22,972 nt of DNA from positions 714-23,685 of the IMG/VR virus record IMGVR_UViG_3300030106_001011. One strand, written 5' to 3'. Both the position numbers and the translations under genes were made by a program. Of the stretch, positions 10,797-13,150 are shown one piece after another. Below the pieces are notes generated by a model. It saw only the letters and a list, made by a program, of their open reading frames with translations, was not told the DNA's origin and ran no database searches. This DNA comes from a virus. The first letter of the stretch is position 1, and every line of letters begins with the position of its first letter.

Positions 10797-11252
10797 TTAG
10801 CATCCAACTTCTGTTTCATCGTAGCTGTCTTCTTCTTCATATTCTATTTCTTCAGCATCTATTGTTACAGGAGCTTTATCTGGTAATATAAAGATACCAC
10901 TAGATGCTTGCATATTAATATCTAACTTCTCAGACTTTGACACTCCTACACGGTCTAATAAAGACTGTGCAGCTACCAGTTTATTACTAGCCTGAGGTAT
11001 TGGTTTATCCGAATCCATGATTTCTAAGAGCTTAAAAGCTGCCTTAGGTGCATTATGAGCTAGTACATCCTTAGTTAACTCTAAGACTTCGTTCTTTAAA
11101 GACTTTAAAACCTGATAATGTCCACCAGAATAACCTGCTAAAGCTGCTGCAGCCTTTGCATCTCCTTGTGTTTCTACAAGATTGTCTAAAAATAATTGTT
11201 GTTTGTCTGTAAGCTTTCTAGCTTGTTGAGTTGTGGGTATAATACTGCTCAT
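10797..11252 (-). CDS. terS: Terminase small subunit
   Basis: A 151-residue protein. The N-terminal ~60 residues hold the pattern of phage small terminases: LTDKQQLFLDNLVETQGDAK followed by AAALAGYSGGHYQVLKSL, a helix-turn-helix that binds the packaging site. A helical oligomerisation part and an acidic C-terminal tail (EEIEYEEEDSYDE) follow; the tail is the usual contact for the large subunit. As first gene of the leftward operon it lies just after promoter 11260-11287. There is no ribosome site before the ATG, and the -10 box ends 7 bases upstream, so the mRNA may start at or next to the ATG. Confidence 0.75.
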   Translation of the reverse strand: MSSIIPTTQQARKLTDKQQLFLDNLVETQGDAKAAAALAGYSGGHYQVLKSLKNEVLELTKDVLAHNAPKAAFKLLEIMDSDKPIPQASNKLVAAQSLLDRVGVSKSEKLDINMQASSGIFILPDKAPVTIDAEEIEYEEEDSYDETEVGC

Positions 11253-11259
11253 GTAAACT

Positions 11260-11287
11260 AGTATAAGGTGCTATGAAAAAAAGTCAA
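11260..11287 (-). promoter_or_regulatory. Leftward late promoter
   Basis: On the minus strand, TTGACT (11287-11282) and TATACT (11265-11260) are separated by 16 bases, a good sigma-70-like promoter. It lies upstream of terS, the first gene of the late operon. The predicted start falls at about 11253, next to the ATG. Its -35 box overlaps one half of the dyad GTCAAG-AAGGA-CTTGAC (11283-11299), whose other half carries the rightward -35 box. Confidence 0.65.
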
Positions 11288-11294
11288 GAAGGAC

Positions 11295-11323
11295 TTGACA
11301 AAAAGCTCTCTGGACTGTAGAAT
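11295..11323 (+). promoter_or_regulatory. Rightward promoter into the inverted-repeat region
   Basis: TTGACA (11295-11300), 17 bases, TAGAAT (11318-11323): near-consensus. Transcription would start at about 11330 and run rightward through the left arm of the large inverted repeat, producing RNA complementary to the mRNA of the right-arm genes. No gene is seen on the plus strand until 12282, so its product is probably non-coding or a long leader. It shares a dyad with the leftward promoter. Confidence 0.6.
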
Positions 11324-11459
11324 GAGGCTTGTCCGGTAGGCAGGTTAGCACCTACAGGATACCCACCACTATATAGTCTTTAAAGCCCGACATTTCTGGT
11401 TTACACCCCAAACAGCAAAAAATATATAACCACACCATAGATATATATGGAGGGTGGTA

Positions 11460-12174
11460 TGGTCTCCTGCGTACCCATAGACTATTCGGGATATGAAAGG
11501 CGATAGGACCAAATAGATATTGATATTCAAACTCTCAGGAGAATTCAGGTCTATATAGAACAGAGATGTGTCACGATAGACTTTGGGGAACGACCATATA
11601 TTGTAAAGTCCACTAGCTTTTTGGAATTTCGTAGACTTGATAGGACTCAGATGGTGCAAGGCAAGCTCTTAATCTTGTGACTAGGCTCTCCCTAGGCAGT
11701 GATGTCTATCAATATAATAATTCTTAGCAAGTCTTCTCCTTTTTTAATAGCTTGCTGGACCTTCAAGTGTGTTTCACTTTCAAAAACTATCTAGTTTACA
11801 AAATCTACAAAGTTAATAAACATATATAAAATTATTATTAAACTAAAAACTTCATAAACTTCAAAGGGTTAGATAGTTTTTGTTTGAATTCATATTACCA
11901 CTTCGTATCCATATTATAAGTTCCTTACGCTGATTATTGTACATCATTATAAGAGCAAGCTAGACATCCTTCGATTGCACTCCATCAACTGCTATCGCAT
12001 GCTAACTTTTACGCTTCTAGAACAAAAAGTCCTTTGTGCGTTCTGAAATCCTTGTATCACTAAGCCCTAAGCCCTGTCTTGAAACTCAAAGAGTTTGCGT
12101 GTTTCTCAAACGTAAAAAGTTTCATATATATTCTCCCTGTATCTTTATTATTAATTTACATGAAACCAAAAAGC
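11460..12174 (-). pseudogene. Left arm: non-coding inverted counterpart of the two right-arm genes
   Basis: Read leftward, this arm keeps both ribosome sites and start regions of the right-arm genes (ACAGGGAGAATAT at 12140-12128; TTATAATATGGATAC at 11919-11905), but the first frame closes after 21 codons and the second after 5. A leftover frame at 11369-11659 still reads FQKASGL, PKVYRD and DLNS as in the right-arm protein. It may be a decayed inverted duplicate, an antisense RNA source transcribed rightward, or both. The block-and-spacer pattern is not what uniform decay gives. Confidence 0.6.
11781..11882. repeat. Side-branch hairpin inside the left arm
   Basis: CAAAAACTATCTA (11781-11793) is perfectly complementary to TAGATAGTTTTTG (11870-11882), a 13-bp stem enclosing 76 very AT-rich bases with a further internal inverted repeat (TTAATAA/TTATTAA). 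It accounts almost exactly for the extra length of the left arm relative to the right arm between paired blocks 11905-11919 and 11770-11779. Confidence 0.75.
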
Positions 12175-12185
12175 GTCACAAGAGT

Positions 12186-12234
12186 CAAGAGCCTGTAACA
12201 GCTAAAGCTTAACAGGCTCTAAACACTGCTCTTG
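12186..12234. other. Apical hairpin with a competing alternative stem
   Basis: AGAGCCTGT (12188-12196) pairs with ACAGGCTCT (12212-12220), with an inner AGC-TAAA-GCT stem, closing the rod. ACAAGAG (12178-12184) pairs with CTCTTGT (12229-12235) just below. Alternatively CAAGAGC (12186-12192) could pair with GCTCTTG (12228-12234), which excludes the first stem. No U-run follows, so it is not an ordinary terminator. Confidence 0.6.
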
Positions 12235-12260
12235 TTAGCTTTTTGTCTCCATGTTATAGT
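12232..12260 (+). promoter_or_regulatory. Promoter for the right-arm genes
   Basis: TTGTTA (12232-12237), 17 bases, TATAGT (12255-12260). Transcription would start near 12267, just before the GGGAGA ribosome site of the first right-arm gene. The matching left-arm position on the minus strand has a weaker -10 (TAAATT), in line with loss of that copy's expression. Confidence 0.5.
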
Positions 12261-12281
12261 ATTGTAAACAGGGAGAATATT

Positions 12282-12464
12282 ATGATACTAATTACCTTTA
12301 AGAACCAAGAAACTTATGAGTTTCAAGACAGTTTTATGGCAAAGTGCTTCATAGGATTTCAATCCACACAAAGCATTTCTGTTGTAAAAGTTAGATGCGA
12401 TAGGGCATCTGATTACGTGGCAATCGAAGAATATCTTAGATTGCTTAATAATAATATCCAATAA
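12282..12464 (+). CDS. Small protein on the right arm of the inverted repeat
   Basis: A 60-residue protein, MILITFKNQETYEFQDSFMA at the start, with an alternating strand pattern followed by a helical end (AIEEYLRLLNNNIQ). GGGAGA stands 5 bases before the ATG at 12282, which I prefer to an upstream in-frame ATG lacking a ribosome site. It is the first gene after the apex promoter, followed by the 91-aa gene with an 17-base gap. No family recognised. Much of its coding sequence is complementary, in blocks, to the left arm, so its mRNA could pair with RNA from that arm. Confidence 0.6.
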   Translation: MILITFKNQETYEFQDSFMAKCFIGFQSTQSISVVKVRCDRASDYVAIEEYLRLLNNNIQ

Positions 12465-12481
12465 AACTAAGGAGTTATAAT

Positions 12482-12757
12482 ATGGATACTACGTTCGACA
12501 TGAAAAAAGTGAAACAGGAAACACTTGAAGGTCCTGCAACCTATAATCAATGTAATGGACTTGCTAAGAAGTTCTCATATGGATTAAAGGGAAAAGAATG
12601 GGGAGAGTCCTATTCTAGAATAAGAGCTTGCTTGCTTGAAGAAAGAGCCGAAGGAAGACTTACTTTCCAAAAAGCTAGTGGACTTTTCGGGAAAACAAAG
12701 CTCCCCAAAGTCTATCGTGACAAAATACAAAAATATCTAGACCTGAATTCTGGATAG
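12482..12757 (+). CDS. Small basic helical protein on the right arm
   Basis: A 91-residue protein with QCNGLAKKFSYGLKGKEWG, then a helical region with RIRACLLEERAEGRLTFQKA and a C-terminus SGLFGKTKLPKVYRDKIQKY. AAGGAG precedes the ATG by 7 bases. The pattern suggests a small DNA- or RNA-binding or regulatory protein, but I do not recognise the family. It ends shortly before two tandem terminators, making a two-gene operon with the 60-aa gene. Long stretches (22 and 20 bp) of its 3' half are perfectly complementary to the left arm. Confidence 0.68.
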   Translation: MDTTFDMKKVKQETLEGPATYNQCNGLAKKFSYGLKGKEWGESYSRIRACLLEERAEGRLTFQKASGLFGKTKLPKVYRDKIQKYLDLNSG

Positions 12758-12774
12758 TTTGTAACTAAGAAAAG

Positions 12775-12803
12775 AGCTAGGTCCTATCGCCTAGCTTTTT
12801 TTT
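12775..12803 (+). terminator. Rho-independent terminator 1
   Basis: AGCTAGG (12775-12781), 8-base loop, CCTAGCT (12790-12796), followed by a run of eight Ts beginning with the last stem base. It ends the two-gene right-arm operon. Its loop and part of its stem (12780-12792) are also complementary to left-arm bases 11498-11510, so pairing with the left arm would compete with the terminator. Confidence 0.85.
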
Positions 12804-12823
12804 GTCTATGGGTACTGAGTAGG

Positions 12824-12851
12824 CTTGGCATTCGCCAAGTCTTCTTTTTTT
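12824..12851 (+). terminator. Rho-independent terminator 2
   Basis: CTTGGC (12824-12829), loop ATTC, GCCAAG (12834-12839), then TCTTCTTTTTTT. It comes 20 bases after terminator 1. The segment 12816-12851 is exactly the 36-base piece that the right arm has and the left arm lacks between two otherwise collinear complementary blocks. Confidence 0.85.
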
Positions 12852-12913
12852 GCAGGAGACCAACCATACTTAATATTACTTTAGAGTATTCCATATACTT
12901 CAGTATACAGTAG

Positions 12914-13041
12914 GGGGCAACAGGTGGAGGGCATACTGTGGATAAGTTGTATATAAGTTGTATATAACCTGTATATAACCTGTATATATCCTGTGGATAA
13001 CTTTCGTATTTATATATAATAGAGGGGCAACAGATGGAGGG
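12914..13041. other. Probable replication origin: phased DnaA-box array
   Basis: Two exact DnaA boxes TGTGGATAA (12937-12945 and 12992-13000) flank four related sequences (TGTATATAA three times, TGTATATAT once), starting at 12948, 12959, 12970 and 12981: six boxes exactly 11 bp apart, on nearly the same face of the helix. A very AT-rich stretch follows (13007-13020). The whole is bracketed by two 18-bp near-identical repeats beginning GGGGCAACAG (12914-12931 and 13024-13041, one mismatch), 110 bp apart, i.e. ten 11-bp steps. A DnaA-like host initiator or a phage protein could bind here and melt the AT-rich part. Confidence 0.65.
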
Positions 13042-13050
13042 AATTAAAAC

Positions 13051-13101
13051 TGTACCTTTGCCTACTGTACCTTACTAAACTATGTACCTATATCTGTACC
13101 T
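13051..13101. repeat. Four TGTACCT repeats upstream of the early promoter
   Basis: TGTACCT occurs at 13051-13057, 13066-13072, 13083-13089 and 13095-13101 in the same orientation, spaced 15, 17 and 12 bases. They lie between the origin-like array and the first early promoter, so they may be binding sites of an activator, repressor or initiator. The rest of 12863-13150 shows no gene. Confidence 0.5.
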
Positions 13102-13150
13102 TTTATAGTATAGTAGTCTTCAAACTATTAAGATAATTGATATAATAGAC

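What the first reader, a model, noticed from the sequence alone, without database searches (positions are those of the whole stretch)
11460..12862. A 1.4-kb fold-back element: alternating perfect blocks and equal-length unrelated spacers
Read directly: about 22 collinear reverse-complement blocks (up to 22 bp, about 250 bases in total) pair 11460-12174 with 12238-12862. The coordinate sums of paired bases stay within 24394-24412 for the inner part and 24286-24293 for most of the outer part. Between blocks the arms look unrelated, yet spacers match in length (16/16, 15/15, 21/21, 23/23, 5/5; others within a few bases). Uniform decay of a duplicate would scatter mismatches. This pattern instead resembles a rod-like RNA or DNA with symmetric internal loops, which would avoid the long perfect duplexes that RNase III or SbcCD attack. 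I know of no phage element described like this.
Basis: partly seen in the sequence, partly recalled or inferred. Interest (0 to 1): 0.95.

Follow-up and report, generated by a model that had tools for sequence, protein, structure and literature searches.

The report
Self-masking fold-back phage messenger RNA
Many uncultured ocean viruses of bacteria carry a 1.4-kb stretch that folds back on itself because a non-coding half keeps evolving to match the half that codes two small unknown proteins, which suggests a message that carries its own antisense and hides its start signals; no described system looks like this.

Summary
The fold-back at 11454-12867 is real: predicted RNA energy is -553 versus -332±10 kcal/mol for shuffles. 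The right arm codes two small proteins, A (60 aa) and B (91 aa), with no known relatives. The left arm is a non-coding, inverted counterpart. The same layout lies beside the terminase small-subunit gene in about 40 IMG/VR marine phage contigs (17 divergent lineages compared), and is absent from the nearest cultured pelagiphages. In 17 of 17 lineages the left arm matches its own right arm best, even where right arms of different lineages no longer resemble each other, so the arms co-evolve. Perfect helices never exceed 24 bp; long ones occur at less than half the random rate. A near-consensus sigma-70 promoter, the left arm, A, B and a terminator form one transcription unit. Where A-B lie on the other strand there is no fold-back, and no terminator protects them from the same promoter, whose RNA is thus predicted antisense to A-B in both formats. 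Best reading: an mRNA whose 5' leader is its own antisense, masking both start sites. Transcription, masking and the RNA (not DNA) level are inferred; the G·U test does not favour plus-strand RNA. A DnaA-box origin candidate abuts the element.

The parts
10797..11252 (-). terminase small subunit gene (fixed left neighbour)
   Evidence: PHROG 51 E 3e-6; 189 IMG/VR relatives
11295..11323 (+). sigma-70 promoter TTGACA-17-TAGAAT driving the element
   Evidence: 11-12 of 12 consensus matches with 17-bp spacing in 19 of 20 lineages, also kept where the rod is absent
11330..11458 (+). conserved 5' leader with the ATAGATATATA motif and a Shine-Dalgarno site
   Evidence: kept even in loci without rod
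11459..11506 (+). possible leader ORF (ATGGTCTCCTGC..., 15 codons) at the outermost block
   Evidence: invariant nucleotides in the close relatives; motif TCTCCTGC kept widely; translation not tested
11460..12174 (+). left arm: non-coding, antisense to A-B
   Evidence: no A/B protein match in any minus frame of rod loci; tracks own right arm
11781..11882 (+). 102-nt AT-rich side hairpin inside left arm
   Evidence: compensated stem changes among relatives of the window clade
12178..12235 (+). central hairpin (turn of the rod)
12238..12862 (+). right arm
12282..12464 (+). ORF A, 60 aa, beta-beta-alpha-beta-alpha model, unknown family
12482..12757 (+). ORF B, 91 aa, helical model, unknown family
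12772..12799 (+). intrinsic terminator 1 directly after ORF B; its loop is complementary to left arm 11498-11510
   Evidence: terminator after B in 13 of 16 A+B lineages
12818..12845 (+). intrinsic terminator 2
12851..12864 (+). outermost right block GCAGGAGACCA, just beyond the terminator T run
12937..13001 (+). two DnaA boxes (TGTGGATAA) flanking 11-bp repeats: origin candidate

Best explanation
The element is one transcription unit: a strong host-type promoter, a 0.7-kb leader that is the antisense of the coding part, two small protein genes (A, B) and a terminator. As the RNA is made, the leader (left arm) pairs with the coding part (right arm) to form a ~1.4-kb rod of short perfect helices and symmetric loops. 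The rod covers the ribosome-binding sites of A and B and so keeps their expression low, late or conditional; leader copies could also act in trans on other A-B messages. Shown: the fold-back, its presence in many lineages, arm-to-arm co-evolution, the helix-length cap, the conserved promoter and terminator, and that in lineages with A-B on the opposite strand there is no rod and no terminator between that promoter and A-B. Inferred: that it is transcribed as one RNA, that pairing represses translation, that short helices evade RNase III, and that the rod lineages kept the antisense role after A-B came to lie on the promoter's own strand.
For: Energy. Own arm matched best in 17/17 lineages, score 232-532 versus null 114. 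Compensation 34/99 in register versus 0-7. Rod in every lineage with A+B on the plus strand; no rod with A-B or B on the minus strand (L066, L072, L097; B-only L082, L086, L087, L092, L096, L101). Promoter 11-12/12 in 19/20 lineages and no conserved internal promoter before A. Terminator right after B in 13/16 plus-orientation lineages; in minus-orientation lineages the terminator is on the minus strand after B and none protects A-B from the plus promoter. Start regions are the most paired parts (A 0.86 versus body 0.70; B 0.74 versus 0.60). Where B is replaced, a shorter rod remains over A and, in L077 and L075, the start of the new B.
Against: G·U pairs are not favoured over A·C mismatches on the plus strand, and the minus strand folds more stably in 16 of 20 lineages relative to shuffles. 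Synonymous sites in blocks are not significantly more conserved when blocks are defined from an outside lineage (p about 0.2). The outermost invariant block lies beyond the terminator. Start-site pairing could be high simply because those sites are conserved. No transcript data.
Confidence: 0.5

Rival explanations
1. DNA-level palindrome: the arms matter as DNA (cruciform, hairpin or recombination substrate at a replication origin), and the left arm is kept similar by short-patch copying between arms (template switching at quasi-palindromes).
For: A DnaA-box origin candidate abuts the element in most rod lineages (22 boxes in 37.4 kb here versus 1 in 310 kb elsewhere). Pairs are almost all Watson-Crick with few G·U. 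The outermost invariant block lies outside the predicted transcript.
Against: The rod covers essentially A-B and stops within about 80 nt of B's stop codon, is absent when A-B are on the other strand, and matched sites in close pairs are isolated single changes rather than tracts. Copying alone does not explain the cap on helix length or why a useless 0.7-kb arm is never lost.
Confidence: 0.22
2. The rod RNA itself is the product: a long double-stranded-like RNA that acts as a structural RNA or decoy (for a nuclease or an RNA-sensing defence), with A and B as partner proteins, as the delta antigen partners the HDV rod.
For: Rod-wide pairing, not only start sites; cap on perfect helices; ORF B is lysine/arginine-rich (sequence); structured phage RNA from terminase genes is sensed by bacterial CBASS (PMC10686824).
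Against: Rod length follows the genes, and minus-orientation lineages lack a rod but keep the genes. No known fold for A or B.
Confidence: 0.15
3. Replication-control RNA: the plus transcript running toward the adjacent origin primes or activates replication, and arm pairing controls it, as antisense RNAs do in ColE1-type plasmids.
For: Transcription points at the DnaA-box array; A-B with antisense next to an origin resembles plasmid copy control (from general knowledge).
Against: Two terminators stand between rod and boxes in the window; no transcript or origin mapping; several lineages lack exact boxes.
Confidence: 0.1
4. Assembly or amplification chimera, or a recent duplicate in simple decay.
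For: Inverted duplicates are a common chimera.
Against: Imperfect arms shared by about 40 independent contigs, with lineage-specific compensation.
Confidence: 0.01

Closest known systems
Obelisks (about 1-kb circular rod RNAs coding Oblins; marine forms in PMC11922315)
   Same: Rod over the whole element, protein-coding in one part, marine bacteria-associated samples, similar size
   Different: Here encoded in a dsDNA phage genome with promoter and terminator; linear by all evidence; A/B have no database relatives; no ribozyme found
Hepatitis delta-like agents (about 1.7 kb, unbranched rod; PMC6628682)
   Same: Unbranched self-complementary rod, small protein coded on one side
   Different: Not circular, not an RNA replicon, no delta ribozyme, DNA phage gene
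Antisense-controlled operons: type I toxin-antitoxin mRNAs with long-range fold-back, phage P4/P1 antisense immunity RNAs (from general knowledge)
   Same: Start sites hidden by RNA pairing; antisense and sense from one locus
   Different: Here pairing spans the whole two-gene coding region through a dedicated inverted arm that co-evolves; A and B are not a known toxin pair
Plant MIRNA genes born by inverted duplication of their target (PMC3237417)
   Same: Inverted, non-coding copy of a coding sequence forming a fold-back
   Different: Bacterial virus; source and copy are adjacent on one transcript; no Dicer; whole arm maintained, not one short RNA
GOLLD / ROOL / OLE large RNAs (PMC12286853)
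   Same: Large structured RNAs, some in phages
   Different: Multi-branched ornate folds with conserved sequence; here an unbranched rod whose sequence turns over completely; no Rfam match
cabRNA, structured RNA from staphylococcal phage terminase genes sensed by CBASS (PMC10686824)
   Same: Structured RNA beside terminase genes
   Different: About 400 nt within terS/terL coding; here a separate unit reading away from terminase

Membership tests
Obelisks | codes an Oblin protein | tested here: inconclusive
   A and B match nothing in Pfam, PHROGs, PDB or BFVD folds; no Oblin profile was named in these libraries
Obelisks | circular RNA replicon without DNA copy | tested here: not met
   Element is a fixed part of phage DNA contigs at one locus
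Hepatitis delta-like agents | unbranched rod | tested here: met
   e.g. L064 450 bp in 72 helices, L070 485 bp in 72 helices, nested on one axis
Hepatitis delta-like agents | self-cleaving ribozyme | tested here: not met
   No Rfam ribozyme in the window or element
Hepatitis delta-like agents | delta antigen homologue | tested here: not met
   No Pfam or PDB match for A or B
Type I toxin-antitoxin / antisense operon | RNA antisense to the protein mRNA from the same locus | tested here: inconclusive
   Layout predicts it in both formats; no transcript data
Type I toxin-antitoxin / antisense operon | toxic membrane peptide | tested here: inconclusive
   A and B are predicted soluble globular folds; toxicity not tested
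GOLLD / ROOL / OLE large RNAs | match to the covariance model | tested here: not met
Transposon-like inverted-repeat element | mobile, several positions or copies | tested here: not met
   One copy, same place beside terS in all contigs

The most novel reading that the evidence does not exclude
A new class of gene: an mRNA whose 5' leader is a full-length, co-evolving antisense of its own coding region, folding the whole message into an HDV-like rod; the same locus exists in a second format where the genes sit on the opposite strand and the same promoter gives ordinary antisense RNA.
Probability: 0.45. Interest if true: 0.93.

Novelty: categorically new. Interest (0 to 1): 0.88.

Why it matters
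It is a large, conserved fold-back in uncultured marine phages, with two new protein families and an inverted non-coding arm that has re-matched its coding arm in every lineage examined while sequences turned over. If it acts as RNA, it is a form of gene control (self-antisense messages in a viroid-like rod) not described in bacteria or phages, and gives a natural system for asking how long double-stranded RNAs escape RNase III. If it acts as DNA, it is a new kind of origin-side palindrome maintained by co-evolution. Either can be tested with short synthetic constructs.

Tried and rejected
Chimera/assembly artefact: rejected (about 40 contigs). Simple decaying duplicate or pseudogene: rejected (tracking). 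Mobile element with terminal repeats: rejected (single fixed position). Phage-specific promoter array: the TATGGTCTCCTGC and CCATAGATATATATGG motifs do not recur convincingly elsewhere in the window. Known RNA family: none. Protein function through Pfam, PHROGs, PDB sequence and Foldseek: no usable match. Named phages: no DNA match of note; HTVC103P, 104P, 115P and 033P lack rod and A/B. Host genomes: no B relative. G·U/A·C strand test: ambiguous, confounded by base composition. An early blastn self-comparison seemed to show two loci without the left arm; a direct search showed that they have it. Synonymous-site constraint: positive with in-group blocks but not with outside-defined blocks, so not claimed.

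Full report
What was checked. The window is 23.0 kb of a 23.7-kb IMG/VR virus record. Genes left of about 11.25 kb are packaging/structural on the minus strand, genes right of about 13.2 kb are replication genes on the plus strand. The nearest named phages are Pelagibacter phages HTVC103P/104P/115P (primase-helicase about 45%, TerS 49-56%); HMO-2011 is more distant (TerS 41%).

Perfect inverted blocks (22, 21, 15, 13, 13 bp and many shorter) pair 11460-12174 with 12238-12862. RNAfold gives -553 kcal/mol versus -332±10 for shuffles; the rest of the window shows no such excess. A gapped alignment of the arms gives about 80% identity over 600 columns, so the spacers are not wholly unrelated, but mismatches look like random letters.

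Anatomy. The right arm contains two genes with good ribosome-binding sites: A (12282-12464, 60 aa) and B (12482-12757, 91 aa). Both are conserved protein families with confident small-fold models (pLDDT 94 and 88) and no relatives in Pfam, PHROGs, PDB or BFVD. The left arm has no open A or B frame in any rod locus. Upstream is a sigma-70 promoter (11295-11323); downstream two intrinsic terminators.

Relatives. A search with B gave 13 contigs, all with both arms. A search with TerS gave 189 hits, 80 kept. About 40 contigs with enough flank show a 1.2-1.5-kb fold-back at the same place. In L064 and L070 it is one unbranched rod of 450 and 485 bp. The nearest cultured relatives lack it.

Co-evolution. 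Left arms share ancestry within the window clade (common 102-nt side hairpin), yet where the right arms of two lineages differ, each left arm follows its own right arm about 3:1. Between the window and a sister clade, 34 of 99 differing columns are fully compensated in register, against 0-7 at 18 other offsets. Across 17 divergent lineages every left arm scores best with its own right arm (232-532; null 114; distant pairs near null). In close pairs, the double changes are isolated single sites, not tracts. This argues for selection on matching rather than occasional wholesale copying, but does not exclude short-patch copying.

Geometry. Across 19 lineages the longest perfect helix is 12-24 bp (mean 18.1) against 27.5 expected if breaks were random, and helices of 16 bp or more number 39 against 90 expected. 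Large loops are symmetric within 1 nt in 69% versus 32% after shuffling (the energy model favours symmetry, so this is weaker).

Transcription unit and orientation. The promoter matches consensus at 11-12 of 12 positions with a 17-bp spacer in 19 of 20 lineages; no internal promoter upstream of A is conserved. A terminator follows B within tens of bases in 13 of 16 lineages with A-B on the plus strand. In lineages with A-B (L066, L072, L097) or a B-like gene (L082, L086, L087, L092, L096, L101; weaker matches) on the minus strand, there is no rod; in those tested the terminator is on the minus strand after B, and no plus terminator stands between the promoter and the genes. TerS trees show rod, flipped and other cassettes beside identical TerS proteins, so cassettes are exchanged. 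The common denominator is that RNA from this promoter is predicted to be antisense to A-B, either directly or through the left arm. This is the main basis of the proposed mechanism.

Mechanism. Because the left arm is transcribed first, nascent A-B sequence can pair at once. Start regions are the most paired parts, and where B has been replaced a shorter rod remains over A and, in two lineages (L077, L075), the new start of B. I therefore favour translational masking by a self-antisense leader (confidence 0.5). Against it: no excess of G·U pairs on the plus strand; if anything the minus strand folds better. Base composition confounds this test, and no minus promoter was found conserved, but the DNA-level rival stays open.

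Origin candidate. DnaA boxes (TGTGGATAA) occur 22 times in 37.4 kb immediately right of the element and once in 310 kb elsewhere in the same contigs, with 11-bp repeats and TGTACCTTT repeats. So the rod abuts a likely replication origin, which keeps replication-control and DNA-level models alive.

Comparison. The fold resembles HDV and Obelisk rods, with a small coded protein on one side, but defining features (RNA replicon without DNA, ribozyme, delta antigen) were tested and not met. The logic resembles antisense-controlled operons, but at a scale and with a co-evolving inverted arm that I have not seen described (literature searches; open-access papers only).

Limits. All relatives are metagenomic contigs; lineages share ancestry, so counts are not independent; no expression data; G·U test ambiguous; 'about 40' counts contigs, of which roughly 20 are non-redundant lineages.

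Noticed in passing
window 12937-13001: Two exact DnaA boxes (TGTGGATAA) flanking 11-bp repeats TGTATATAACC; the boxes are about 180-fold enriched at this place across related contigs: probable phage replication origin using host DnaA.
   Followed up: partly
window 13045-13110: TGTACCTTT repeats (2 exact here, up to 7 in relatives such as L066/L072) and GTGGAGGG/TTGAGGGCG repeats right of the element: possible iterons or regulator sites.
   Followed up: partly
window 11781-11882: 102-nt AT-rich hairpin present only in the left arm of the window's clade, with compensated stem changes (e.g. CTATCTA/TAGATAG to CCACCTA/TAGGTGG in L032).
   Followed up: partly
window 11436-11472: Motif CATAGATATATATGGAGGGTGGTATGGTCTCCTGC conserved even in lineages without the rod: leader peptide start or RNA signal.
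   Followed up: partly
window 12772-12799 with 11498-11510: The left arm is complementary to the loop and inner stem of terminator 1, with matched changes in relatives; pairing would act as an anti-terminator.
   Followed up: no
L091, L094, L097, L100, L101, L087, L092: Identical TerS proteins sit beside different cassettes (rod, flipped, other): this locus is a cassette-exchange hotspot.
   Followed up: partly
window 11283-11299: A minus-strand terminator-like hairpin overlaps the -35 box of the plus promoter, just upstream of terS.
   Followed up: no
L077, L075, L105, L103: Lineages with ORF A but a different, longer second gene (about 114-123 aa, N-terminal resemblance to B); the rod shrinks to cover A and, in L077 and L075, the new start.
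   Followed up: partly
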